Part shown: one piece after another, positions 1,964 to 44,562 of the stretch
How the letters are laid out: every line of letters begins with the position of its first letter
How positions within the stretch are numbered: the first letter of the stretch is position 1
IMG/VR virus record: IMGVR_UViG_3300032053_000050
Coordinates: 1-64,000 of that record
DNA from: a virus
Length of the DNA stretch: 64,000 nt
Direction: 5' to 3' (one strand)
Notes under the pieces: generated by a model
Told to the model about the DNA's origin: nothing
The model's database searches: none
Seen by the model: the letters and a program-made list of their open reading frames with translations, nothing else
Made by a program: the position numbers and the translations under genes

Positions 1964-3172
1964 TTATTTCCATTTTTTTACAAGTTTTTTAGCTTCCATT
2001 AAATGTTTAGAAGTGTTTAACATATATTCTACTTTCTTTTCTTTATATTTATCAGAATTTTCAATTTTAGTTTTTGCCAATCCAAAATATGCAGATTTGT
2101 GCTTATCAGTTGCAAATTTAGCCCAATTACCAAAGTAAAATCCTTTTTCATCATTATATGCGTTAACTAATTCATTAACGCAATCTTCTATATAATTGGA
2201 CCAGTTAACAATAGATACTTTTACATTAGTAATAAAATCAAATGCATCTCTATCATCTTCATAGTTCAACTCAGTTATAACATCATCTAAAGTTTCATTA
2301 AGATAATTCTGAATAATAAAATCTTCTATAAATATTGAAACAGTTCTGATTCCATGTTTATGAATATACCATTCACATTTTATTTTCAACATCTGACCAT
2401 CTTCAAATTCAACTACCCAGCCCTCAATATCTTCCATTGTCTTTGCCATTTCTAGCAAATCATCAACAGAACGATATTCTTTTAATTTTTTAATACGAGG
2501 AACATTTTTGTATTTTATACTTTCTATATTTACATCTACAACTGAAACATATTCTCCATATTTATTATCTCTAAATCCGATTAAACGAAGTTCTCTTCCA
2601 GAATATTTTAAAACAATACGATTATCATAAGCTACATATTCAAACAATGGAGTAAAATCTACTTCTAACGCACTATTTATTAAATTTGCAATATCTTCTC
2701 TTTCTTCATATATTTTATTTGCAGCTAAAGACTGTTCATTATCTATACCTCCTTGAGTTTTGGCAAATATTTTTTCATTTGGCAACTTCATAAAAGCTAT
2801 TAAAGAACCATCTTCTTTAAGAGTTATATTTTTTATTTTTTTATCTTTAACTACATCATATAACGTTTCTGGTGTTTGATTTATGTTAAAAAATTTTCGT
2901 AACATCAAATATCTTCTGAATAAAGTTCCATCTTCATTGAATATGAAAGTAACTCCACGCATATCTCTTGCGTGTATAAAACGTTCGTTTTCTAATGGCT
3001 TAACGAACCAATCATATTCACACAAAAAATAATTGAATGTAACTACTTTGAAACCATCAATAATCCATTCAGTCTTATAAAAATTAAAATTCTTATAAGC
3101 TTCACAAATTCTTAATGCATCATTATAGGTTATTTGATATACGCCTTCTCTTGGAGTTAAATGTTTTATCAT
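1964..3172 (-). CDS. rnlA: T4 Rnl1-type RNA ligase
   Basis: 402 residues from ATG 3172 (an ATG three codons earlier is also open). The nucleotidyltransferase motif I is KEDGSL, with the lysine that is adenylated; upstream RGVTFIFNEDG and RYLMLRKFFN match the Rnl1 N-terminal region, and EGWVVEFEDGQMLKIK matches motifs IV/V. T4 Rnl1 reseals tRNAs cut by host anticodon nucleases, which suits a phage with a large tRNA set. The N-terminus starts MIKHLTPRE, a leader shared with four unrelated small proteins in this window. Confidence 0.88.
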   Translation of the reverse strand: MIKHLTPREGVYQITYNDALRICEAYKNFNFYKTEWIIDGFKVVTFNYFLCEYDWFVKPLENERFIHARDMRGVTFIFNEDGTLFRRYLMLRKFFNINQTPETLYDVVKDKKIKNITLKEDGSLIAFMKLPNEKIFAKTQGGIDNEQSLAANKIYEEREDIANLINSALEVDFTPLFEYVAYDNRIVLKYSGRELRLIGFRDNKYGEYVSVVDVNIESIKYKNVPRIKKLKEYRSVDDLLEMAKTMEDIEGWVVEFEDGQMLKIKCEWYIHKHGIRTVSIFIEDFIIQNYLNETLDDVITELNYEDDRDAFDFITNVKVSIVNWSNYIEDCVNELVNAYNDEKGFYFGNWAKFATDKHKSAYFGLAKTKIENSDKYKEKKVEYMLNTSKHLMEAKKLVKKWK

Positions 3173-3184
3173 TTTTAACATTAT

Positions 3185-5997: not shown

Positions 5998-6582
5998 ATG
6001 AGAATAGCTATTTTGGGTGGAGCATTTGATCCACCCACTAATGGACATATTAATTTAGCTCAATGCATATTAGATCGTTTAGGATTTGATGAAGTTTGGA
6101 TGATGCCTGTTTCTCAACACACATTTGAAAAGAAGATGACAATATTTGAACACAGAATTACAATGTGTTTAATAGCTACGGATTTTAATCCTCGCATACA
6201 TGTAACTTATTATAAACAAGAAAATAATCATATAGATGGAACTTTATCTTTATATAGAAAATTAAGAAAGACATATAAAGAAAAATTTTATATGGTTATT
6301 GGAATGGATAATGCTAATAATATTAATAAATGGATTAATGCCGATGAATTAATTAATATAGTTCCTTTTATTGTAGTTACTCGTAAAGGTGTTACAAAAA
6401 ATGAAAAAATAAATTGGTATATTGAAGATGACAAACATATTTTTGTTAAAGATTGCGATATTATGGAAATTTCTTCTACAATGATTAGAGATGCAGTGAA
6501 ACATAATAACAAGGAAATTTTAAAACAGGGTTTAAATCCTAATGTATTAACATATATTAAAGATTACAAACTTTATGAATAA
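5998..6582 (+). CDS. nadD: Nicotinate-mononucleotide adenylyltransferase
   Basis: 194 residues. GGAFDPPTNGHI contains the T/HxGH nucleotidyltransferase signature, MVIGMDNANNINKW matches the NadD loop that contacts substrate, and ISSTMIRD is the C-terminal ISSTxxR motif. It joins NaMN and ATP into NaAD, the third step of the Preiss-Handler route, whose other three enzymes are encoded at 39.5-42.9 kb. It begins two bases after the preceding gene ends. Confidence 0.9.
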   Translation: MRIAILGGAFDPPTNGHINLAQCILDRLGFDEVWMMPVSQHTFEKKMTIFEHRITMCLIATDFNPRIHVTYYKQENNHIDGTLSLYRKLRKTYKEKFYMVIGMDNANNINKWINADELINIVPFIVVTRKGVTKNEKINWYIEDDKHIFVKDCDIMEISSTMIRDAVKHNNKEILKQGLNPNVLTYIKDYKLYE

Positions 6583-11173: not shown

Positions 11174-12295
11174 ATGAAACAATATACAATAGAAAAATTA
11201 GAAAAAGAAAATTTAATAATATTTTCTGTTATAACAGGGTCTTATGCTTATGGAACCAATATTCCTACTTCAGATATAGATATACGTGGAATATTTATAC
11301 AGCCGCTTAATGATATACTTGGTTTTGGAAAAATAGATCAAGTTTCAGATGAAACGAATGATATAATATATTACGAAATAGGAAGATTTCTAGATTTATT
11401 AAAAAACAATAATCCAAATATTTTAGAAATCATAAATGTTCCAGTTGATTGCATAAAAATAATGCATCCAATAATGAAACAAATATTTGATCTTAAAAAT
11501 GAATTCATAACTAAAAAATGCCGTTGGTCATTTGGTGGTTATGCTATAGAACAAATAAAAAAAGCTCGTGGTCTTAATAAAAAAATGAATTGGGAAGAAA
11601 CCCAAATGGTTCGTAAAACAGTTCTTGATTTTTGTTATGTTCTTGTTGGTGGTGGATCAATGCCATTCAAAGAATGGATAAACGCACAAATAGATTACAG
11701 AGATCTTAACAAATGTCTTAATGGAAATAGAGTATTATTATCTCAAACTGATATAGGACTTGCTGCAGTAGATCATTTTCATGATTTATATGTTATGTAT
11801 GTATCTCCAAATTTTGAAAAATGGGGAGTAGTTTCAGATGAAGATATAGCTAATGATGTTCAACTTACATCAATACCAAAAGATTTAGAAGTTAAAGGTT
11901 CTCTTTATTTTAATAAAGACGGTTATTCTGTTCATTGTAAAAAGTACAAAAAATTTCAAGAATGGAAAGCTAATCGTAATGAAACTCGCATAAACATGGT
12001 TAAAGAACATGGAAAGAAATACGATGGAAAAAATTTAATGCATACTTTTAGACTATTAGAAACAGCGCTTGAAATAGCCGAAGGAAAAGGAATTAATGTT
12101 AGAAGAAATAATATAGAAAAACTTTTAGCTATACGAAAAGGAGAATACGAATATGATGATTTGCTTATTGAAGCTGAAGAATTAATACAAAAAATGGATG
12201 TTGTATTTAAAAAAAGTAATTTACCCGAAAACACTGATATAGATATTGTAAATACGTTGCTTATAAATATGCGTAAAGAGTGGTATAAAATATAA
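11174..12295 (+). CDS. RlaP-like DNA polymerase beta-superfamily nucleotidyltransferase
   Basis: 373 residues. The N-terminal GSYAYGTNIPTSDIDIRGIF is the hG[ST]...DxDxR core of the polymerase beta/RlaP nucleotidyltransferase family. Family members are found in many large phages and are suspected to act in RNA repair or tRNA end modification, but this is not established. In this window it would add to the ligase/kinase/phosphatase set. Confidence 0.8.
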   Translation: MKQYTIEKLEKENLIIFSVITGSYAYGTNIPTSDIDIRGIFIQPLNDILGFGKIDQVSDETNDIIYYEIGRFLDLLKNNNPNILEIINVPVDCIKIMHPIMKQIFDLKNEFITKKCRWSFGGYAIEQIKKARGLNKKMNWEETQMVRKTVLDFCYVLVGGGSMPFKEWINAQIDYRDLNKCLNGNRVLLSQTDIGLAAVDHFHDLYVMYVSPNFEKWGVVSDEDIANDVQLTSIPKDLEVKGSLYFNKDGYSVHCKKYKKFQEWKANRNETRINMVKEHGKKYDGKNLMHTFRLLETALEIAEGKGINVRRNNIEKLLAIRKGEYEYDDLLIEAEELIQKMDVVFKKSNLPENTDIDIVNTLLINMRKEWYKI

Positions 12296-13026: not shown

Positions 13027-13635
13027 ATGATGTCATTTAATAACAAACCAAATAAATTTCATAAAGATAAAGAAGGAAAACCCTTCTGGGAATCAAGATC
13101 TGTAGCTGTAGAAGTTTCAGTTTTTGCTATACACAATAAACAAGTTTATATTCTTGTTGAAAAAAGATCATCTATTATGATGGATGGTCCTAATTTATGG
13201 GCACTCCCATCAGGATATATGGATTATGATGAAACAGGATGGGATGCAGCTAGACGTGAACTTTATGAAGAAACAAGTTTAGATATTGACAGGTATGATA
13301 AAATCTGTATAACAAATAACAATAAACAACCCTTTGAAGTAATTACAGATCCTAAACATAATAGACAAAATATTGTGTTGGAATATTGTATTGTTTTGAA
13401 TTTTAATAAATCACAAGAAAAATTTCCGATAGAATTAGAACAATATAAAAATAGAGAAACTGCTCAAATAAAATGGTTAATGCCTAATAGACTTACACAA
13501 GTTAATTGGGCTTTTAATCACGATGAACGAATAAAAAATGCTTTAGTAATATTTAAGAAATACATATATCCAAGTTTTTGGAGAAAATGTTGGAATTTAT
13601 TAACAAAATTTTATCAAATTTTAATTTTTTCTTAA
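13027..13635 (+). CDS. Nudix hydrolase
   Basis: 202 residues. GYMDYDETGWDAARRELYEE fits the Nudix box (Gx5Ex7REUxEE). The overall length and flanking SVAVEVSVFAI and IVLEYCIVLNF strands resemble the ADP-ribose/NAD-type Nudix subgroup, so hydrolysis of a dinucleotide or ADP-ribose is plausible given the NAD-synthesis genes elsewhere. Substrate is not determined by sequence. Confidence 0.85.
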   Translation: MMSFNNKPNKFHKDKEGKPFWESRSVAVEVSVFAIHNKQVYILVEKRSSIMMDGPNLWALPSGYMDYDETGWDAARRELYEETSLDIDRYDKICITNNNKQPFEVITDPKHNRQNIVLEYCIVLNFNKSQEKFPIELEQYKNRETAQIKWLMPNRLTQVNWAFNHDERIKNALVIFKKYIYPSFWRKCWNLLTKFYQILIFS

Positions 13636-14057: not shown

Positions 14058-14933
14058 ATGGGATACGGGACATATTCAACAATTAGTAGAGATCTAAGAG
14101 CAACCTCTCTTGGATATACTACAAAATCTGCTCATGAAATTTTTAAATCAAAATCTATTAACAATGCTATGAATCCAAATGGCATTGTTCTTCGTGAGTC
14201 AAGAGATTCTACAGAACATCCAAATGCTTTACCTATTATTATTGCGTTAGATGTAACAGGTTCTATGGGAACTGTTCCTCATCAATTAGTTAAAGATGGT
14301 TTACCAACTCTTGTAACAGAAGTTATTAAAAATGGTCAACCAGATCCACAAATTTTATTTTTAGCTATTGGAGATCATGAGTGTGATAATTCTCCTTTAC
14401 AGGTAGGACAGTTTGAATCAAGTGATGAACTTTTAGATAAATGGCTTACTGATGTTTATCTTGAAGGTGGTGGTGGTGGAAACTCTGGTGAAAGCTATCT
14501 TTTAGCTTGGTATTTTGCAGGTTATCATACAGCAACAGATTCTTTTGAAAAAAGGAAAGAAAAAGGATTCTTATTTACAATTGGAGATGAACCTACTCTT
14601 AAATATATTCCAAAAGGAGACATTAAAGAAATTATGGGTGATGGACAATATGAAGAATTTTCTGCTGCTGCACTGTTAGATAAAGCAAGAGAAACTTATA
14701 ATGTATTTCATTTACATATAAGACAAACTGGAGCTGGACAACGTCAAGAAACTATGGATGGATGGAAACAATTAATGGGTGAGAATTTAATAGTTATTGA
14801 AAGACATACAGATGTTGCAGATGCAATTACAAAAATTATAACTAAACATTGTGAAAAACCAAAAGTTTTAAAATCTAAAAAGGAATCTAAAAAAGAAGAA
14901 ATAGATGAATCTTCTATTGAAATAATTCTTTAA
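14058..14933 (+). CDS. VWA-domain protein
   Basis: 291 residues. IIIALDVTGSMG is a MIDAS motif (DxTxS type) and GESYLLAWYFAG, FLFTIGDEPTL follow as in von Willebrand A domains. A basic/acidic tail ends ESKKEEIDESS. VWA proteins form metal-dependent protein contacts; a second VWA protein here is Ro60 (35504). The stop overlaps the purA start by one base. Confidence 0.75.
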   Translation: MGYGTYSTISRDLRATSLGYTTKSAHEIFKSKSINNAMNPNGIVLRESRDSTEHPNALPIIIALDVTGSMGTVPHQLVKDGLPTLVTEVIKNGQPDPQILFLAIGDHECDNSPLQVGQFESSDELLDKWLTDVYLEGGGGGNSGESYLLAWYFAGYHTATDSFEKRKEKGFLFTIGDEPTLKYIPKGDIKEIMGDGQYEEFSAAALLDKARETYNVFHLHIRQTGAGQRQETMDGWKQLMGENLIVIERHTDVADAITKIITKHCEKPKVLKSKKESKKEEIDESSIEIIL

Positions 14934-16102
14934 TGAAAAATTTAGCTATAGTAGGTCTAGGGTTTGGGGATGAAGGTAAAGGTACAATAACTGATTATCT
15001 TTGTTCCCAATGTTCTAATCCATTAGTTATAAGATATTCCGGTGGACATCAAGCCGGTCATACCGTTTATTATAACAATAAACACCATATTTTTTCAAAC
15101 TTTGGTTCAGGAACTTTACGAGGAGTTCCTACATTCTGGTCTAAATATTGTACAGTAGACCCTATAGGAATAATGAATGAACTTAGTGTTCTAATGAGTA
15201 TAGGTATTTTTCAACCTAAATTATTTATTGATCCAGATAGCCCAATAACTACTCCTTATGATAAATTTTATAATCATAATACTGAAACTTCAAATCACCA
15301 TGGAAGTTGTGGTGTAGGATATGGAGCTACTATTGAAAGAGAAGAAAAACATTATTCATTAACTTTCAGTGATTTATTTTATAGTGATATTTTTAAGATT
15401 AAGCTTAAAATGATTGAAAAATATTATTATAATATATTTGATAAAAATTATACACAATATCCATATCTTGATAATTCAATTCTAGATCAAATGATTAAAG
15501 ATTTTAATATATATTGTGATCAATTAAAACAATTATCTTTTATTGAACAAAAATCATTATGTGAAGTAATTTATTCAGACTATATTTTTGAAGGTGCTCA
15601 AGGAATTTTATTAGATCAAAATATGGGATTTTTTCCCCATGTATCTAGATCTAATTCAGGAACTAAAAATATTATTGAATTAATAGGAAAAACAAATCAA
15701 AAAGATATACATTATTATCTTGTAACACGTGCTTATCAAACTCGTCACGGTAATGGTCCTATGACTAATGATAAAAGAGGTCATAGTATTATTGAAAATC
15801 CTGATGAAACTAATATTAATAGAAAATGGCAAGGGAAATTTAGACGTTCATTGCTTGATTTAGATTTAATTCAATATGCTATTAATAAAGATGAAGGTCT
15901 TAGAAATTCTAAAAATAAAACATTAGTAGTTACGTGTTTAGACCATATGAAAAATGATTATAGATTTACACATAAAGGAGAAATAGTAGCATCAACTTCT
16001 GAAGAAGAATTTATAAAAGTTATTTCAAATATTTTAGGAATTTATATATTATTTATAAATGATTCTCCTGATTCTAAAACTTTTAAAAAAATATTCTTAT
16101 GA
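14933..16102 (+). CDS. purA: Adenylosuccinate synthetase
   Basis: 389 residues. GFGDEGKGTITDYL is the GTP-binding loop with the catalytic Asp of PurA; GGHQAGHTVYY, GSGTLRGVP and FEGAQGILLDQNMGFFP with RSNSGTKN follow in the order of the family. Somewhat shorter than the usual ~430 residues. Cellular PurA makes adenylosuccinate from IMP and Asp; phage PurZ relatives make the 2-aminoadenine precursor. The retained GDEGKG Asp favours PurA, but I cannot exclude an altered base pathway. Confidence 0.85.
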   Translation: MKNLAIVGLGFGDEGKGTITDYLCSQCSNPLVIRYSGGHQAGHTVYYNNKHHIFSNFGSGTLRGVPTFWSKYCTVDPIGIMNELSVLMSIGIFQPKLFIDPDSPITTPYDKFYNHNTETSNHHGSCGVGYGATIEREEKHYSLTFSDLFYSDIFKIKLKMIEKYYYNIFDKNYTQYPYLDNSILDQMIKDFNIYCDQLKQLSFIEQKSLCEVIYSDYIFEGAQGILLDQNMGFFPHVSRSNSGTKNIIELIGKTNQKDIHYYLVTRAYQTRHGNGPMTNDKRGHSIIENPDETNINRKWQGKFRRSLLDLDLIQYAINKDEGLRNSKNKTLVVTCLDHMKNDYRFTHKGEIVASTSEEEFIKVISNILGIYILFINDSPDSKTFKKIFL

Positions 16103-34867: not shown

Positions 34868-35479
34868 ATGGCAAATTTTAAACAAACATCTTACAAGTAT
34901 ATCTATATTTATAGAATTATTAATTTAACAAATAAAAAATGTTATGTAGGTTTTCACGCAACTAATAATGAATATGAAAAAGACAATTATTTTGGAAGTG
35001 GAATTTTAATTGATAAAGCAATTAAAAAATATGGAATTAATAATTTTGTTAAAGGAATAATTGAATATATTGATGTTAAAGAATGGAAAGAAAAAGAGTT
35101 ATTTTGGATAAAACAAATGAATTCGCATCTGAGTAAACATGGATATAATCAAACATGGGGAGGAGAAGGTTCTTTTGGATTAATTATGAGTGAAGAATCA
35201 AAAGAAAAATGTCGTATCGCAGCAAAAAATAAACCGGCGATTAAAGAAGAAACTAGACAAAAATTAGCAGATAAAGCGAAAGAACGAAAAATGTCTGATA
35301 AATGTAAAGCAGCATTAATAAAATCTATAACTGGAAGAAAAAAATCTAAAGAAGAATTAAATAAAATATCTAGAAAAGATTGGAAACATTCTTTAGAAAC
35401 AAAATCAAATATGAGTAAAAAAAGATTAGGGGTTAAGCGTGGCCCATATAAAAAACGCAAAATAATTTCTTTAATTTAA
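34868..35479 (+). CDS. GIY-YIG homing endonuclease
   Basis: 203 residues. YIYRIINLTNKKCYVGFHAT gives the GIY...YIG-like pair (here YIY and YVG), followed by FGSGILIDKAIKKYG, then ELFWIKQMN and NUMOD3-type repeats ending in a basic GPYKKRK tail. Mobile gene directly upstream of Ro60. A GIY-YIG gene also lies downstream of Ro60 on the other strand. Confidence 0.88.
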   Translation: MANFKQTSYKYIYIYRIINLTNKKCYVGFHATNNEYEKDNYFGSGILIDKAIKKYGINNFVKGIIEYIDVKEWKEKELFWIKQMNSHLSKHGYNQTWGGEGSFGLIMSEESKEKCRIAAKNKPAIKEETRQKLADKAKERKMSDKCKAALIKSITGRKKSKEELNKISRKDWKHSLETKSNMSKKRLGVKRGPYKKRKIISLI

Positions 35480-35503: not shown

Positions 35504-37219
35504 ATGGCAAAATTTAATGAAAAAAGAATTTCTAAATCAGAAGTAAAACCTGCATTAACTCATCAAGGCGGCGCAGGTCTTACACAAAAAAGTGAGCATG
35601 AATTAATTGGAATTTTAGCTACGGGAATACAAAATACGTACTATGAAAAAGAAACAGAACGTGAAATACGTTTTAAAGAAGTTTTTGCAAAAGTTGCGCA
35701 AAAAAATGCATTATTCGCAGCAAAAGCTTTAATATATGCTCGTACTGTATTTGGTCAAAGAAGTGTAACTCATTATGGTGCTGTAGAAATTATACCATTT
35801 TTAAGTGGTAATGAAATAGCAAAAAAATTCTTTTCAAAAAGAGATAGAAAAGAAAATAAAGGAGGTATAGTTTATAGATTAGATGATATGGCTGAAATAT
35901 TAGCATGTTATCAAGCTAAAAATGGAATTGATGCGCCTTTACCTAATGCTTTAAAAAAGGGATTTAAAGATGCTATAGAAAAAAGTGATGCATATCAGTT
36001 AGCAAAATACCAGATGAAGTCTCGTGGTGTAAGCCTTGTTGACATCGTTAACTTGGTTCGTCCTATACCTACTAAGATGAATGGAACCATTACTGTGACT
36101 GAAGAAGAATACCAGAAGGCTATCAAGGGAACTAAATTCGTTCCAGGACATAAGAAGTACAGAGCAGAATATGCAGAAATCCCTGTTCGTAATGAAAAAG
36201 GAACTACTATTCCAGCACTTCATGCACTTGTTATCGGATTGCTTAAGCAGTTCAACACTGTTGAAGACAAGAACACCGAAGCAGGTAAGGTTGTAGCCGA
36301 AAAAGTTAAGAAGGGTGAAATCACTGCTGAACAGGCAACTGTTGAACTTAATGAAGCTAAGACTGACAACTATGTAGACCTTATTAAGACTAAGAAGATT
36401 GGGTACCTTGCATTACTTCGTAACGTACGTAACATTCTTAAGACCAATGATACTGCATTACTTGACATGGCTTGTGAACTTTTAGTTCAGAAGGACTTCA
36501 TTGTTAAGTCACTTGTATGGCCTACTCAAATTGATGTAGCTTTAGAAATTATGACTCTTGAATTCTCTGGCGCGCAAATGGCAAAAGTTACTAAGGCTCT
36601 TGGACTCGCTTATGAATTAGCAATTCCTAATCTTGAACAACTTCTTCCAGAAGGTAAAACTGCAGTCGTATTCGATACTTCAGGTTCTATGGGAGGTGAG
36701 AACCATATTTATCTTGATGCAAAAAAATCTATTAATAAAAAACCTGCTGATAAAGCTGCGCTTATAGCTGCAACTTTTGCCAAAGGAGTTAATGGAGATG
36801 TATACCATTTTGGGTCTACTTCTGAACAAATTATAGGATGGAATCCAAATGATTCTGTTAATACTTTAAAACAGAAGTTTATGTCATATAACGGACGTTG
36901 TGGTCATGGAACAGACTTTGGAGCTTGCTTCAAATTATTTGAACACATGAATAAACAATATGATAGAATTATTCTTATTTCTGACGAACAAGATGGTTAT
37001 GGAAATGTAGAAAGCAATTACAAAGGATATTGCCAAAAGTTTGGAACTCCATACGTGTATATCATAAACATATGTGGATATGCTGTAACTTCTCCTATAA
37101 AAAGTGGTGATAGAGTATTTCGTTTATACGGATACAATCAAGATTTATATGACAAAATAACTCAAATGGAAATAAATCCTCAGATTGTTATAGAAGAAAT
37201 TAACAAAATAGAAATTTAA
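35504..37219 (+). CDS. rsr: Ro60 (TROVE and VWA domain) RNA-binding protein
   Basis: 571 residues, close to Rsr/Ro60 (about 530). The N-terminal TROVE HEAT-like ring is seen in LTHQGGAGLTQKSEHELIG, VTHYGAVEIIPFL and MKSRGVSLVDIVNLVRPIP, and the C-terminal VWA in VFDTSGSMGG (MIDAS DTSGS). Ro60 binds Y RNAs and misfolded RNA and, with PNPase, forms a degradation machine in bacteria. Strong ribosome site AAGGAGG before the ATG, unusual here. Bases about 36000-36560 are visibly richer in G+C than the rest. Candidate partner RNAs are the Y-like elements A-E. Confidence 0.9.
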   Translation: MAKFNEKRISKSEVKPALTHQGGAGLTQKSEHELIGILATGIQNTYYEKETEREIRFKEVFAKVAQKNALFAAKALIYARTVFGQRSVTHYGAVEIIPFLSGNEIAKKFFSKRDRKENKGGIVYRLDDMAEILACYQAKNGIDAPLPNALKKGFKDAIEKSDAYQLAKYQMKSRGVSLVDIVNLVRPIPTKMNGTITVTEEEYQKAIKGTKFVPGHKKYRAEYAEIPVRNEKGTTIPALHALVIGLLKQFNTVEDKNTEAGKVVAEKVKKGEITAEQATVELNEAKTDNYVDLIKTKKIGYLALLRNVRNILKTNDTALLDMACELLVQKDFIVKSLVWPTQIDVALEIMTLEFSGAQMAKVTKALGLAYELAIPNLEQLLPEGKTAVVFDTSGSMGGENHIYLDAKKSINKKPADKAALIAATFAKGVNGDVYHFGSTSEQIIGWNPNDSVNTLKQKFMSYNGRCGHGTDFGACFKLFEHMNKQYDRIILISDEQDGYGNVESNYKGYCQKFGTPYVYIINICGYAVTSPIKSGDRVFRLYGYNQDLYDKITQMEINPQIVIEEINKIEI

Positions 37220-37221
37220 TT

Positions 37222-37821
37222 TTAAAGGGAACCCAAAGTTCCCTTTATTTTTTTACCTTTGTTCCAAGGAACTCTTCCTTTCATGTTTTCACTCATTTTT
37301 TTGCGTGATTCTTTTGTATGATGTTTTCCATACATACCATTTTTTTCTCCTAAATTATTTATTTTATTTTTATTTCCTATTTTTCTTTTACATTCTTCAG
37401 ATCTAAGATGACCCTTACATCCTTTAACATTTATTAACTTTAATTTTTTTGTCATTTTTTCAATAGTTTCTTTACTGTAAATATTATGTTTTCCTTTATT
37501 CCACGGTTCAACTCCGCGTGTTCCATTTCCGTATCCACTTTCAGAAATATTATAACCATTAGGATTAATTGTATTTTTTTCCTTTATCCAATATTCTTCT
37601 CGTTCATTTAATTGTTTTTCAGATACACAATATTCAATTATTTCTTTAATAAAAGTTTTTTTACTATATTTTTTTATAGCTTTATTTAATAATATCCCAC
37701 TACCAATATATTCATCTATTTCATCGTTTGACACATGTTGTCCCACATAACTTTTCCCTGTTATTAAATTTGTAGTAATATACACATACATATATTTAAA
37801 AACTTTCTTTCGTTCTTTCAT
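37222..37821 (-). CDS. GIY-YIG homing endonuclease
   Basis: 199 residues on the minus strand. MYVYITTNLITGKSYVGQH has the YVYIT...YVG pair, with IGSGILLNKAIKKYSKK and NUMOD3-like RSEECKRKIGNKNK and KESRKKMSENMKG repeats. Converges on the Ro60 gene; its last codons overlap the shared terminator. Confidence 0.88.
   Translation of the reverse strand: MKERKKVFKYMYVYITTNLITGKSYVGQHVSNDEIDEYIGSGILLNKAIKKYSKKTFIKEIIEYCVSEKQLNEREEYWIKEKNTINPNGYNISESGYGNGTRGVEPWNKGKHNIYSKETIEKMTKKLKLINVKGCKGHLRSEECKRKIGNKNKINNLGEKNGMYGKHHTKESRKKMSENMKGRVPWNKGKKIKGTLGSL
37224..37246. terminator. Bidirectional terminator
   Basis: AAAGGGAAC/GTTCCCTTT hairpin with T-runs on both strands between convergent genes (Ro60 and GIY-YIG). 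Confidence 0.8.
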
Positions 37822-37925: not shown

Positions 37926-38261
37926 ATGAAACTTAAAGATTTAACAAAGGAACAAACTATTGAAATCGCTCAGTTGATTTACCCATTTTCAGATGATGTT
38001 AAATCAGATTATGTTTTTCATTATCAACCATACAATAAAGAATGGTTTGAAGATGCTAGAGAATATGTTAGATTAACATTTCGAGGCGTAACATTTGGAG
38101 ATACTGTTGATGATCTTGTATTAGATATAAACAAAAACTTAGATTGTTGGTTTTATTATAGTAGAAAAGATGGTCTTCATACTTTACCAAGTCGTAATCA
38201 ACATGCAGTTCAAAAGAAATTTATTGAATGGAACATAGAACCTAATTATACACAAGAATGA
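37926..38261 (+). CDS. Uncharacterised protein upstream of deaminase
   Basis: 111 residues (KLKDLTKEQTIEIAQLIYPF...VRLTFRGVTFGDTV). The ATG of the next gene overlaps its end (ATGA). A small phage-specific alpha/beta protein, no function known. Confidence 0.55.
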   Translation: MKLKDLTKEQTIEIAQLIYPFSDDVKSDYVFHYQPYNKEWFEDAREYVRLTFRGVTFGDTVDDLVLDINKNLDCWFYYSRKDGLHTLPSRNQHAVQKKFIEWNIEPNYTQE

Positions 38262-38736
38262 AACCCCACTTTTTTCTTAAAACAGCTTATTTACTTGGTA
38301 AAGAATCTAAATGTGTTTCTAAACAAGTAGGTGCTCTTATCGTTAGAGATAATAGAGTCATATCAATGGGATATAATGGAACTCCAGCAGGCTATGAAAA
38401 TTGCTGTGATCATTTTCCAGATTATACTAAAAAAGATCGTGATGTTCATCATAAATGGTCAAGAATTTACGAAATACACGCTGAACAAAATGGTATCGAT
38501 TTTGCTGCTAAACACGGTGTTAGTACTACGGATGTGATTTATATTGCATACTAGAACCATGTGATGAATGTCTTAAAAGCATAATTGCAGCAGGTATTAA
38601 AAAAGTATATTTTGTGAATGAATATGATAAATCTACAAAAGATAATGGTTTGTGGGATAGAATTGAACATGAACAAGTTACAGATGTAGATTTACTTGAT
38701 TGGATCTGGGTTCAAGAACATCCAGAAATGTATTAA
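38258..38736 (+). pseudogene. Deoxycytidylate deaminase, split by a frameshift
   Basis: Frame 1 (38258-38554) has GALIVRDNRVISMGYNGTPA and HAEQNGIDFA, the HAE zinc motif of dCMP deaminases. It ends at a TAG, but the -1 frame from 38551 continues LEPCDECLKSIIAAGI (the PCxxC zinc motif) to 38736. One missing base near 38549 separates the two halves of the zinc site. As sequenced the enzyme is inactive unless frameshifting occurs. Confidence 0.8.
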
Positions 38737-38806: not shown

Positions 38807-39108
38807 ATGAAAATTCCAGTAGTAGGTGATAAAATTTATGTTCCTAGCTCAATTTACGTTTATCGTGGAGCCGATGATTTTTGCGGTGGAATTGCTACTG
38901 TATCAAAAGTTGAAGTAGACAAATATAAGAATGGCTCTGATAATCCAAATTATTGTTTTGTCAGTGTTAAAGAAAGACCAGGCTCAGCATATAATTGGCC
39001 CATTTAGAACAAGAGCAGGAAAAACTTAAAGAAATGTATGGTGAAGAAATTGCTCATCCTGACCCAGACTTAAGATTCAATGACTCAGAAGCTGATTGGC
39101 ACCAATAA
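38807..39108 (+). pseudogene. Conserved phage protein, split by a frameshift
   Basis: From ATG 38807 (MKIPVVGDKIYVPSSIYVYR...RPGSAYNWPI) to a TAG at 39005-39007, then in the -1 frame LEQEQEKLKEMYGEEIAHPD...DWHQ to 39108. Adding one T in the TTT run restores the frame. The joined order GDKxYVPSS...GGxATVSKVE...YNW...EEIAHPDPD matches a phage family of unknown function that I recall. Confidence 0.65.
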
Positions 39109-39473: not shown

Positions 39474-40367
39474 ATGAATTACGAAAAAGCAGTATCGAAT
39501 ATACGTAAAGAACTTAAAGCGTATATAGAGAAATGGAAAATCCAATCTCTTGTTATTGGAATATCTGGAGGAATTGATAGTTGTTTATGCGCAGTATTAG
39601 CAAAGGTGGTTTGTGAAGAATTAAATATACCACTAATTGGAAGAAGTTTACCAATAACTACTAATACTCAAGATGAAATAAATAGAGCAGATTTAATAGG
39701 TAGAGTTTTTTGTTCAAATTTTAGACGAGAAAATTTAGATGAAATTTTTAATAAATTGTCAATTATAAATCCAGATCCTATATATAGTTATATTGAGTCT
39801 ATAGATATACGTGGATTATCTGATAAACAAATAACCAAAGAATGGAAAATTCGTAATGGAAACATAAAAGCAAGACTTCGTATGATTTATCTTTATAATA
39901 CTGCTTCCCAAAATAGATTAGTTCTTTCCACAGATAATTATACAGAATATCTATTAGGGTTCAGTACTATTATGGGGGATTGGGGAGATTTTGGAATGAT
40001 TCAATATTTATGGAAAACAGAAGTTTATGAAATGAGTGAATGGATTGCAAACAATGAATGTAAATTTTTAGACCAACAAGAAGCTTTAATGTCTACTATA
40101 GAAGCAATGGCAACTGATGGTCTTGGAGTTTCTAATCTTGGAGACCTTGGGCAAATATTACCAGAATGGAAAGGAAATTCAAGAGATGGATATGTAGAAG
40201 TTGACAAAATACTTCAACAAATGGAAAGTATATCTATTAGAAATCCTCATCATGAATTAGATAATCATCCAGTTATATTACGTCATTTAAATTCTCAATT
40301 TAAACGTGATTGGCCTATAACAATTAAAAGAAATAAGATTTTGGCCATACAAGAAGATGTGTTATGA
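39474..40367 (+). CDS. nadE: NAD synthetase
   Basis: 297 residues. VIGISGGIDSCLCA is the PP-loop (SGGxDS), NIKARLRMIYLY, STDNYTEYLLGF and MGDWGDFG follow as in NadE. It amidates NaAD to NAD+ with ammonia (no glutaminase domain here). Followed 36 bases later by pncA. Confidence 0.92.
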   Translation: MNYEKAVSNIRKELKAYIEKWKIQSLVIGISGGIDSCLCAVLAKVVCEELNIPLIGRSLPITTNTQDEINRADLIGRVFCSNFRRENLDEIFNKLSIINPDPIYSYIESIDIRGLSDKQITKEWKIRNGNIKARLRMIYLYNTASQNRLVLSTDNYTEYLLGFSTIMGDWGDFGMIQYLWKTEVYEMSEWIANNECKFLDQQEALMSTIEAMATDGLGVSNLGDLGQILPEWKGNSRDGYVEVDKILQQMESISIRNPHHELDNHPVILRHLNSQFKRDWPITIKRNKILAIQEDVL

Positions 40368-40403
40368 ATATAAATTGTAATCAAAGAAAATAATTGAATT
40401 AAT

Positions 40404-41006
40404 ATGAAAGCTTTAATAGTTGTAGATTGTCAACAAGACTTTATGCCCGGTGGAGCACTCGCAGTACCAGGAGGCGATGAGGTGGTACCAATTATAAATG
40501 AATTAATCACAAATTTTGATTTGGTTATTTTTACAAAAGACTGGCATCCAGATAATCATAGTGGATTTGCTTCACAAGCAGGAGTACAACCTTTTGATAC
40601 AATAGATGGAAATGTATTTTGGCCAGATCATTGTGTTCAATATACTCCAGGAGCAGATTTACACCCAGATATTAATTTTGCTAAATGTAAAAAAGATTTC
40701 TATATCTTTAAAAAGGGAGAAGATGTTCATTTACAAGGTTATAGTGCATTTGATTTTAATGATGATAAAGAAAAAATACCCGAATTGGTTAAATTTTTAA
40801 ATGAAAAAAATATTACACAAATATATATTGTAGGTTTAGCTGGTGATTATTGTTGTAGAGAAACTGCAATAGATGCATCAGTATATGGTTTTGATACATT
40901 TTTTATAATAGATGCAATAAGATTTATTTCTGATGATACATCAAAAACTTTAAATTTGTTATATAAATCAAATGTTAAAATTATAAAAAGTAAAGAATTA
41001 TTTTAA
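40404..41006 (+). CDS. pncA: Nicotinamidase
   Basis: 200 residues. VVDCQQDFMPGGAL has the catalytic Asp, FTKDWHPDNHSGFA the metal-binding Asp/His pair, WPDHCVQYTPGA the third His, and GLAGDYCCRETAID the catalytic Cys. Converts nicotinamide to nicotinate, the first step of the Preiss-Handler route. Confidence 0.92.
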   Translation: MKALIVVDCQQDFMPGGALAVPGGDEVVPIINELITNFDLVIFTKDWHPDNHSGFASQAGVQPFDTIDGNVFWPDHCVQYTPGADLHPDINFAKCKKDFYIFKKGEDVHLQGYSAFDFNDDKEKIPELVKFLNEKNITQIYIVGLAGDYCCRETAIDASVYGFDTFFIIDAIRFISDDTSKTLNLLYKSNVKIIKSKELF

Positions 41007-41018
41007 ATTATTTGTACC

Positions 41019-41540
41019 ATGAAAACATTAGTGATACATCCAAAAGATCATAGTACAGATTTTTTATCTACTATTTATGAAGATAAACCATCTTGGCATA
41101 TTATTAATTTAGATGTATCGAATAAAATTTTAAAAAATGAAATATCTCGTCATGATAGAATAATTATAATGGGGCATGGTACTCCTATGGGTTTATTAGG
41201 TTATGGTAGATATGTTATAACTCCCAAATTTGTTTATTTACTTCGTGACTTAAATAAAAAGTATGTTTTTATTTGGTGTAATGCTAATAAGTTTATAGAA
41301 AAATATTATCTTCATGGATTTTATACAGGAATGATTATTTCTGAAATGAGAGAAGCATATTATTGTGGTATTAGAACTACTAATGCAGAAATAAATTTTT
41401 CTAATTTTCTTTTTGCAGATTCTATTAAAAAGTCTATTGATTTAGATGATTTTTATAAAAATGTAATTCTTTACTATGATAATTATATTCAATTTAATCC
41501 TATAATTTTATTTAACAAAAAAAATATATACGAAAGATGA
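41019..41540 (+). CDS. Uncharacterised protein with GHG/WCN motifs
   Basis: 173 residues. IIIMGHGTPMGLLG and YVFIWCNANKFIE give a His and a Cys separated by about 45 residues inside strand-like segments, as in caspase-like (CHAT/C14) folds, and GFYTGMIISEMREA follows. I do not know a characterised relative. It lies inside the NAD-salvage cluster, between pncA and pncB. Confidence 0.5.
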   Translation: MKTLVIHPKDHSTDFLSTIYEDKPSWHIINLDVSNKILKNEISRHDRIIIMGHGTPMGLLGYGRYVITPKFVYLLRDLNKKYVFIWCNANKFIEKYYLHGFYTGMIISEMREAYYCGIRTTNAEINFSNFLFADSIKKSIDLDDFYKNVILYYDNYIQFNPIILFNKKNIYER

Positions 41541-41746
41541 CACAAAAAATAATTTATTGTGCGCCTATTAATTCAGGAGAACCAGGTGTATCATTTAGAG
41601 AAATTAATAAAGAACTTATTGATGGATGGTCGATTGTATCTGTAACTTCTCAGGTTTGTGCAATTACATCTGGAGGGCAAACTTATTCTGTAGCAAAAAC
41701 ATACGGAGGATTTGCTATTGTACTAGAAAAAAATATAAAAGAATAA
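41537..41746 (+). CDS. Small uncharacterised protein
   Basis: 69 residues (MTQKIIYCAPINSGEPGVSF...), beta-rich with a Thr/Ser core. Coupled by ATGA to the previous gene and three bases before pncB. Confidence 0.5.
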   Translation: MTQKIIYCAPINSGEPGVSFREINKELIDGWSIVSVTSQVCAITSGGQTYSVAKTYGGFAIVLEKNIKE

Positions 41747-41748
41747 AA

Positions 41749-42930
41749 ATGCAAACCGAGCCTATAATAAAATCTATATTAGATTGCGACCTATATAAAT
41801 TTAGTATGATGAATGCTATACTGAAGCTTTTTCCTACAGCAAAAGTTCGTTATAGATTAATAGTTCGTTCAGAAGTTATATTTCCAGAAGGATTTGGCCA
41901 AGAACTTAGAAAGCAAGTTAACAATATGTTTTATCTTAAGCTTAGTCGTGGAGAAAAGAATTGGTTTGCTGGAAGATGTAAATATATTGATCCTTCTTAT
42001 TTTGATTTTCTTGAAGGATATAGATATAATCCATCAGAAGTTGGAATTATTCAAGATGGTGGAAAACTTGAAATTCTTATAGAAGGTTATTGGTATCGTA
42101 CAGTTCTTTGGGAAGTTCCTCTTATGGCTCTTATATCAGAATTATACTTTGATATGACTAATCAAAAGCCAGTTAATCGTGTTGAAAGAGAACAAAACAA
42201 TTAACGTAAAGCTGGATTGTTTAATATGCATAATGTTAAGTTTTCAGATTTTGGAACACGTAGAAGATTTTCATATGAAAATCAAGCTGAAGTAGTTTCA
42301 GATCTTATTTTTCAATGTAGAAATACATTTAATGGAACGTCAAACGTACATCTTGCATATTTGAATAATGTTTGTCCTATAGGAACTCATGCTCATGAAT
42401 GGTTCATGTTCCATGCAGCAAAATATGGTTTTAAGCAAGCAAACTTTTTATCACTTGAACATTGGTCTAATGTTTATCAGGGTGATCTTGGAATTGCTCT
42501 TACAGATACATTTACAACCGATGCATTTTTCAAATCCTTTGGTAAAAAGTTTTCTAAACTATTTGATGGTGTAAGGCAAGATAGTGCAGATCCATTTGTT
42601 TTTGCTAAAAAAGCTATTAAACATTACGAAAGCATGGGAATAGATCCTGAGTCTAAAACTATTATTTTTTCAGATAATCTTACTCCAGAAATGGCAGTTT
42701 CACTTAATAGTTTTTGCACGCAAGAAATAAAATGTGCTATGGGAATAGGTACAAATCTATCTAATGATGTAGGTGTAAAACCATTGAATATGGTCATTAA
42801 GATGGTCGCCGTTAAACCCGAAGAAGAGGATGAATGGATTTCTACCATTAAACTTTCAGACTCAGCAGAGAAGCACACAGGTGACGAAAAAATGATTGAA
42901 TTTTGTAAATATCAACTTAATATAAAATAA
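41749..42930 (+). pseudogene. pncB: Nicotinate phosphoribosyltransferase with an in-frame stop
   Basis: N-part: SILDCDLYKFSMMNAILKLFP and WEVPLMALISELYF, as in PncB. A TAA at 42202-42204 interrupts; the same frame goes on RKAGLFNMHNVKFSDFGTRR, GTHAHEWFMFHA, ALTDTFTTDAFF, FDGVRQDSADPF and GIGTNLSNDVG to 42930. Joined length is 393 residues, right for PncB, which turns nicotinate into NaMN. Either a recent nonsense mutation, an error, or two coexpressed parts (an ATG at 42217 could restart). Confidence 0.85.
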
Positions 42931-44034: not shown

Positions 44035-44562
44035 TTATCTTTTGTATGGACCTCGTTTTTTTCCTAATCGAGATTTAGTCATTTTTAATCTTGTTTCTTC
44101 CGTTTTAGGTTTTTTCATTTTTTGTTTAGTTTCTTCTGAAAGATTATAATGTTCTTTGACAGTATTATCATAATTTAATTTACGAGAAATAGTACGTTTT
44201 TTTATCCATTCAGAAGTTTGTTTTTTTCCTTTTCTTGTTTTACTCATTTTTTCACGACTAAAAATACTATGAGAAGCTTTTTCTTTAATACCTCCTTTAG
44301 GACTTATATTATATCCATTAGGAACTAAAGTATTATATTGTTGAATATATTTTTCTTGCGCATTAAAAGCATCTTCTTTAGTATCAAAAAATTCAAGAAT
44401 TTCTCTTTTAAATTTGTTTATTCCATATTCATTCAAAGCATATTTAATGTATATACCACTTCCTACGTAAATATCTTCTAAATTATTAGTAGAATGATCA
44501 CCTATATATTGTTTCCCATTGATAATATTTGTAGTTAAATAAACAAAATGAAATTTTTGCAT
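44035..44562 (-). CDS. GIY-YIG homing endonuclease
   Basis: 175 residues. HFVYLTTNIINGKQYIGDHS is the GIY-YIG pair, VGSGIYIKYALNEYGIN the next motif, and EKYIQQYNTLVPNGYNIS with NUMOD3-type tails (SEETKQKMKKPKTEE). Convergent with the upstream operon. Confidence 0.88.
   Translation of the reverse strand: MQKFHFVYLTTNIINGKQYIGDHSTNNLEDIYVGSGIYIKYALNEYGINKFKREILEFFDTKEDAFNAQEKYIQQYNTLVPNGYNISPKGGIKEKASHSIFSREKMSKTRKGKKQTSEWIKKRTISRKLNYDNTVKEHYNLSEETKQKMKKPKTEETRLKMTKSRLGKKRGPYKR

What the first reader, a model, noticed from the sequence alone, without database searches (positions are those of the whole stretch)
39474..42930. Complete Preiss-Handler NAD+ salvage set (PncA, PncB, NadD, NadE)
pncA, pncB and nadE cluster at 39.5-42.9 kb, nadD is at 6.0 kb. 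Together they convert nicotinamide, the product of NADase defence systems, back to NAD+. Phage NAD+ reconstitution pathways that defeat NAD-depleting defences are known with other enzymes. Unknown small proteins within the cluster (41019, 41537) are candidate partners. pncB carries an in-frame TAA here.
Basis: partly seen in the sequence, partly recalled or inferred. Interest (0 to 1): 0.72.

Follow-up and report, generated by a model that had tools for sequence, protein, structure and literature searches.

The report
Phage nicotinamide-to-NAD+ salvage genes
A fragment of a very large bacterial virus carries genes for all four enzymes that rebuild the cofactor NAD+ from nicotinamide, one of them split by a stop codon in this copy; several other giant phages already in databases carry the same set, so it is a new example of a known kind rather than a new system.

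Summary
The four enzymes are there. NadE (39474-40367), PncA (40404-41006) and a nicotinate-type PncB (41749-42930) lie together and NadD lies at 5998-6582. Families, catalytic motifs and, for NadE, a predicted fold agree. PncB is cut by one in-frame TAA (42202-42204) between its two domains. All 14 distinct relatives are open there and PncB otherwise shows purifying selection. A neighbouring dCMP deaminase is frameshifted, so local sequence error or recent decay both fit. The set recurs: all four families occur in Bacillus phage G, a 735-kb metagenomic phage, a gut phage and probably the Agrobacterium and Sinorhizobium jumbo phages. A 2023 paper reports four nicotinamide-to-NAD+ genes in a wastewater phage. 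It is not NARP1 and not the NadV route. NAD+ resynthesis from nicotinamide is well supported; action against NADase defences is plausible but untested. The presumed partner 41019 is a caspase/CHAT-fold protein with an invariant His/Cys pair, widespread in large phages and only once found near PncA among 81 loci, so not a dedicated NAD partner. Some related viral contigs pair these genes with a TonB receptor, PnuC and NadR, which suggests precursor uptake as a rival role.

The parts
39474..40367 (+). nadE, NH3-type NAD+ synthetase, divergent phage clade; SGGxDS at residues 31-36
   Evidence: PF02540, TIGR00552; AF2 model best matches H. pylori NadE Z 24.9 and Francisella NMN synthetase Z 24.5; divergent C-terminal motifs
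40404..41006 (+). pncA, nicotinamidase; D8/K104/C150 triad and D46/H48/H76 metal ligands by alignment to solved nicotinamidases
   Evidence: PF00857, PRK11609; 2wt9 nicotinamidase 2.8e-42 with residues aligned; motif positions
41019..41540 (+). Small stand-alone caspase/CHAT-fold protein, predicted dyad His53/Cys87; passenger rather than pathway enzyme
   Evidence: AF2 pLDDT 97, SAVED-CHAT Z 11.6, separase 10.4, dyad invariant in 34 and in three independent relatives
41537..41746 (+). 69-aa protein of unknown function
   Evidence: no family above cut-off
41749..42204 (+). pncB, N-terminal domain, ended by in-frame TAA at 42202-42204
   Evidence: PF17767 3e-30; 14 distinct relatives read through with sense codons
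42205..42930 (+). pncB, catalytic NAPRTase domain (GTxAHE histidine)
   Evidence: PF04095 1.6e-54; P. gingivalis NAPRT 2im5 2e-70; possible restart codons TTG 42217 or ATG 42226 read from sequence
5998..6582 (+). nadD, nicotinate-nucleotide adenylyltransferase; GGAFDPPTNGH and ISSTMIR motifs
   Evidence: TIGR00482 122 bits over cut-off; B. subtilis NadD 1kam 1.2e-22
13027..13635 (+). Nudix hydrolase, weakly like NrtR/NadM-Nudix; candidate ADP-ribose-handling member of the module
   Evidence: PF00293 over cut-off; NtrR and NadM-Nudix models weak; 30% identical to the Nudix beside NadD in gut phage MT835470
43154..44034 (+). Two unknown ORFs (138 and 155 aa) that travel with the cluster
   Evidence: homologues lie between PncA and PncB in L003

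Best explanation
A huge phage, probably of a Bacteroidota host, carries a deamidated (Preiss-Handler) NAD+ salvage module: PncA hydrolyses nicotinamide to nicotinate, PncB makes NaMN from nicotinate and host PRPP, NadD adenylates it to NaAD, NadE amidates it to NAD+. It keeps NAD+ available during infection, most usefully when NAD+ is being cleaved to nicotinamide (host NADases, or ADP-ribosylation). Enzyme identities are shown by sequence and, for NadE, predicted fold; pathway flux and the benefit to the phage are inferred. In this particular copy PncB is interrupted, either by sequence or assembly error or by a recent nonsense mutation.
For: All four families confirmed with catalytic residues aligned to solved enzymes. 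The order TROVE/vWA - dCMP deaminase - NadE - PncA - PncB is kept in a 405-kb relative. All four families are found in 7 of 18 surveyed PncB-bearing records, some of them only by weak matches. PncB differences to L003 are concentrated at third codon positions and it has no excess of changes at invariant columns. PncA uses nicotinamide, which ligase use of NAD+ would not release (general biochemistry).
Against: PncB is interrupted here. NadD was not found in the 405-kb relative, so the full set is not fixed even in the close lineage. No PRPP synthetase in this fragment. NadE is divergent at its C-terminal substrate region. No expression or activity data. Host assignment rests on indirect signs (PncB kin, a PorP/SprF gene).
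Confidence: 0.78

Rival explanations
1. Dedicated counter-defence: the module exists mainly to undo NAD+ depletion by host NADase systems (a deamidated counterpart of NARP1/NARP2), with the Nudix protein clearing ADP-ribose.
For: Starts from nicotinamide, the NADase product; Nudix families in 16 of 18 records, contiguous with PncA-PncB-NadE-NadD in gut phage MT835470; macrodomains in some records; precedent in NARP1 (PMC12774641).
Against: No convincing defence-model hits among cluster proteins; Nudix is common in jumbo phages generally (45%, PMC9503650); nothing here tests protection.
Confidence: 0.35
2. Precursor acquisition: the genes are part of a wider phage programme to import and use vitamin B3 compounds, raising NAD+ for phage replication irrespective of defence.
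For: 735-kb phage LR756501 has PncB-NadE-TonB receptor-PnuC-NadR-PncA together; of 25 viral contigs with this TonB receptor family, 24 have NadR and/or PnuC within 9 kb.
Against: The window fragment has neither TonB receptor nor PnuC; some short or distant contigs may be bacterial DNA misfiled as viral.
Confidence: 0.4
3. In this phage the pathway is decaying: PncB is a fresh pseudogene and the host supplies the step.
For: In-frame TAA in PncB and a frameshift in the dCMP deaminase, the only two lesions in 27.6 kb aligned to a relative, both within 3.7 kb.
Against: Everything on both sides of the stop is conserved and under purifying selection; clustering of lesions also fits a poorly sequenced stretch.
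Confidence: 0.35
4. PncB is made as two chains, or the TAA is read through, and is active in spite of the stop.
For: The stop falls between the two Pfam domains and in-frame restart codons lie 12-21 bases downstream.
Against: No relative is split; no ochre-suppressor tRNA was found and TAA is not read through elsewhere.
Confidence: 0.06

Closest known systems
Bacillus phage G gp275-gp283 (NC_023719)
   Same: PncA-like gp275, NAPRT gp277, NadD gp281, NadE gp283 within about 6 kb of one jumbo phage
   Different: NAPRT and NadE belong to other subfamilies; KptA sits in the cluster; gp275 is a weak nicotinamidase match (40 bits, cut-off 174)
Sinorhizobium phage Phosso and Agrobacterium phage Atu_ph07
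   Same: NAPRT, NadE, Nudix, an adenylyltransferase and an isochorismatase-family hydrolase in the same phage, largely one cluster in Phosso
   Different: The adenylyltransferase of Phosso resembles archaeal NMN type, not NadD; hydrolase match weak; PnuC also present
LR756501 (735-kb metagenomic phage) and MT835470 (gut phage)
   Same: All four families; in MT835470 PncA, PncB, NadE, NadD, Nudix are nearly contiguous
   Different: LR756501 adds TonB receptor, PnuC, NadR and a PRPP synthetase
Wastewater huge phage 5-SewaE
   Same: Reported to encode four genes that convert nicotinamide to NAD+ (PMC10747093)
   Different: The paper text read here does not name the four genes; sequence not compared
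Vibrio phage KVP40 NadV/NatV salvage and NARP2
   Same: Phage-encoded NAD+ resynthesis from nicotinamide (as cited in PMC6715854, PMC9503650)
   Different: Amidated two-enzyme route with NadV; here a deamidated four-enzyme route and no NadV
NARP1 (Adps + Namat)
   Same: Same proposed benefit: rebuild NAD+ from breakdown products (PMC12774641)
   Different: No Adps/PRPS-type enzyme in the fragment and the only NAPRTase-fold enzyme is nicotinate-type

Membership tests
Preiss-Handler salvage pathway | Nicotinamidase PncA with D-K-C triad and metal site | tested here: met
   alignment to 2wt9/1im5, positions; NCBIfam equivalog score 158 just under cut-off 174
Preiss-Handler salvage pathway | Nicotinate phosphoribosyltransferase PncB, intact | tested here: inconclusive
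   Both domains nicotinate-type but in-frame TAA between them
Preiss-Handler salvage pathway | NaMN adenylyltransferase NadD | tested here: met
   TIGR00482 over cut-off; 1kam 1.2e-22
Preiss-Handler salvage pathway | NAD+ synthetase NadE acting on NaAD | tested here: inconclusive
   Family and fold met; fold ties with NMN synthetase (Z 24.9 vs 24.5), so substrate is not settled
NARP1 | Adps (PRPS-like) plus Namat (Nampt-like) | tested here: not met
   No PF13793 in the 71.8-kb record; the single PF04095 protein is NAPRT-type. Record is a fragment.
NadV/NatV (KVP40-type, NARP2-like) | Nicotinamide phosphoribosyltransferase NadV | tested here: not met
   Only PF04095 hit scores 294 bits to the nicotinate model against 57 to the phage nicotinamide-type PHROG. 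Record is a fragment.
Anti-NADase counter-defence system | Restores NAD+ and phage growth under NADase attack | not testable with these tools
   needs an experiment
Caspase-like clan CD / CHAT peptidase (u41019) | Clan fold with His and Cys at ends of adjacent strands | tested here: met
Caspase-like clan CD / CHAT peptidase (u41019) | Peptidase activity | not testable with these tools
   no Pfam, PHROG or PADLOC match

The most novel reading that the evidence does not exclude
Huge phages of Bacteroidota carry a deamidated NAD+ reconstitution system, distinct from NARP1 and NARP2, which in some lineages is joined to phage-encoded outer- and inner-membrane uptake (TonB receptor, PnuC, NadR) and an ADP-ribose Nudix hydrolase, so the phage can both recycle NADase products and import new precursor.
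Probability: 0.2. Interest if true: 0.7.

Novelty: new member of a known kind. Interest (0 to 1): 0.4.

Why it matters
NAD+ is a main battlefield between phages and bacteria. A nicotinamidase-based route would be a third biochemical way for phages to rebuild it and could help in hosts that lack a nicotinate or nicotinamide phosphoribosyltransferase (Bacteroides ihuae, a control genome here, shows none). Bacillus phage G, a cultured phage, carries a similar set, so the idea can be tested directly.

Tried and rejected
PncB as NadV: rejected on model scores. Alternative genetic code or suppressor tRNA for TAA: no second in-frame stop in 27.6 kb of aligned coding sequence and no ochre-suppressor anticodon. 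Whole-window sequencing noise: rejected, lesions are local (the other flagged hits were antisense ORFs). Recurrent neighbour at 34868 as a pathway partner: its family includes the GIY-YIG homing endonucleases of the window. u41019 as NAD partner: 1 of 81 loci near PncA. Full-text reading of the 2024 Nature NARP paper and of Li 2024 (Microbiome): not held. Two paper searches for Preiss-Handler and jumbo-phage NAD terms returned nothing.

Full report
What is there. The region 39.4-43.1 kb codes, in order on the + strand, for NadE, PncA, a 173-aa protein, a 69-aa protein and PncB; NadD lies at 6.0 kb. Pfam and NCBIfam identify NadE, PncA, both PncB domains and NadD. The nicotinamidase matches solved nicotinamidases best (2wt9, 2.8e-42) and keeps the Asp-Lys-Cys triad (D8, K104, C150) and the metal ligands (positions). 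NadD matches B. subtilis NadD along its whole length. PncB matches nicotinate, not nicotinamide, phosphoribosyltransferases, with the Porphyromonas gingivalis enzyme closest among solved structures. NadE keeps SGGxDS but its C-terminal motifs differ from the canonical ones; its predicted model (mean pLDDT 80) still matches H. pylori NadE at Z 24.9 and, tied, Francisella NMN synthetase at Z 24.5. So amidation of a nicotinate compound is well supported, but which one (NaAD or NaMN) is not. Either way the four enzymes together would yield NAD+ (inference).

The stop codon. PncB has one in-frame TAA at 42202-42204, between the NAPRTase_N and NAPRTase domains. All 20 loci compared (14 distinct sequences) have a sense codon there. 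Against the closest relative, codon differences favour third positions (PncB C-domain 0.16/0.12/0.38 by position), and the window protein does not deviate more than others at columns that are otherwise invariant (2 of 92), so the gene was functional until very recently or still is. Seventy-two proteins of the 405-kb relative match the record over 27.6 kb; only two lesions showed up, this TAA and a frameshift in the dCMP deaminase near 38.53 kb. A further frame break near 39.0 kb is suspected from reading alone. Lesions that close together fit either a poorly resolved stretch of assembly or local decay; I cannot decide. Intact copies exist in relatives.

How common it is. Across 18 records carrying PncB-type genes (chosen because they carry them or a neighbour of the pathway, so not an unbiased sample), all four families were found in seven: this record, L009's contig, LR756501, MT835470, Bacillus phage G, Atu_ph07 and Phosso. 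Some of these are weak: the isochorismatase matches of Atu_ph07, Phosso and MT835470, and an NMN-type adenylyltransferase in Phosso. In phage G the NAPRT, NadD and NadE are strong, over cut-off, while gp275 is a weak nicotinamidase match. A Nudix protein occurs in 16 of 18; in MT835470 PncA, PncB, NadE, NadD and Nudix are nearly contiguous, and that Nudix is 30% identical to the one at 13.0 kb here. The close 405-kb relative keeps the order of the cluster but shows no NadD. In the PncB tree the window pairs with that relative (99/97); phage sequences do not form one clade and sit among Bacteroidota-type enzymes.

Prior art. The wastewater huge phage 5-SewaE is reported to carry four genes from nicotinamide to NAD+ (PMC10747093). 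Li et al. [quoted passage not shown] the paper was not held and I know it here by title only. pncB with prs in Rheinheimera phage Barba19A is in PMC6715854. PMC9503650 surveys phage NadV/NadM/NadR and proposes salvage as an answer to NADases; a search of its text found no mention of PncA, NadE or nicotinamidase. The finding is therefore a further member of a known kind.

Mechanism and role. Best reading: a deamidated salvage pathway that keeps NAD+ up during infection. PncA points to free nicotinamide, which NAD glycohydrolysis or ADP-ribosylation releases, and ligase use of NAD+ does not (general biochemistry). That favours recycling but does not single out defence NADases: PMC9503650 reports at least ten ADP-ribosyltransferases in phage G. 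A different role emerged from relatives: LR756501 has PncB, NadE, a TonB-dependent receptor, PnuC, NadR and PncA in one stretch, and of 25 viral contigs with that receptor family, 24 have NadR and/or PnuC within 9 kb, several also PncA, PncB, NadE or NadD. A NadR of this set matches solved NadR enzymes. That looks like import of B3 compounds. Not all of these contigs have been shown to be viral, and the window fragment has neither receptor nor PnuC.

The small proteins. u41019 has no Pfam, PHROG or PADLOC match, yet its model (pLDDT 97) matches SAVED-CHAT (Z 11.6), separase, gingipain and caspases. Plain Foldseek ranked flavodoxin-like folds first with poor superposition, so the assignment rests on the second aligner plus the motif. 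His53 and Cys87 sit at the ends of the two strands where clan CD peptidases carry their dyad, and are invariant in 34 sequences; because the search pattern contained the WCNA motif, I checked three relatives found independently of it, and they keep both. The family is in at least 194 viral stretches and lies near PncA in 1 of 81 loci, so it is not a dedicated NAD partner. It may be the most unusual protein here. u41537 remains unknown.

Limits. No activity, expression or host data. The sequence is a fragment, so absences (NadV, PRPP synthetase, PnuC, receptor) say little. The survey started from PncB and so cannot give true frequencies.

Noticed in passing
window 41019-41540: Stand-alone 173-aa protein with caspase/CHAT (clan CD) fold and invariant His53/Cys87, at least 194 viral relatives plus Lak megaphage homologues; no Pfam, PHROG or PADLOC model matches it.
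   Followed up: partly
L022:12353-16938, L005:2895-6566, L021:2743-7264, L217-L240: TonB-dependent receptor followed by PnuC and/or NadR beside NAD salvage genes in viral contigs, including a 735-kb phage; looks like a phage-carried nicotinamide riboside uptake set.
   Followed up: partly
window 53644-60414: PorP/SprF-family type IX secretion protein (PF11751, 7e-54) next to a 1911-aa beta-helix/pectate-lyase-like protein in a phage record; points to a Bacteroidota host or a captured surface protein.
   Followed up: no
window 38258-38736: dCMP deaminase split by a frameshift near 38.53 kb; intact in L003.
   Followed up: yes
window 38808-39108: A small ORF seems to change frame near 39.0 kb; read by eye, no homologue compared.
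   Followed up: no
window 53086-53385: tmRNA called by ARAGORN and by Rfam as permuted tmRNA (RF04321) inside a tRNA array of a phage; about 25 tRNAs in two arrays.
   Followed up: no
window 35504-37219: TROVE (Ro60-like) plus vWA protein upstream of the NAD cluster, kept in the 405-kb relative; RlaP (11174-12295) and a T4-type RNA ligase (1964-3181) suggest RNA repair functions.
   Followed up: no
window 34868-35479, 37222-37821, 44035-44562: Several GIY-YIG homing endonucleases inserted between genes; related ones sit near PncB in other phages.
   Followed up: partly
window 14933-16102: Adenylosuccinate synthetase (PurA family, PF00709 3.5e-48), with a weak match to PurZ of 2-aminoadenine phages.
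   Followed up: no
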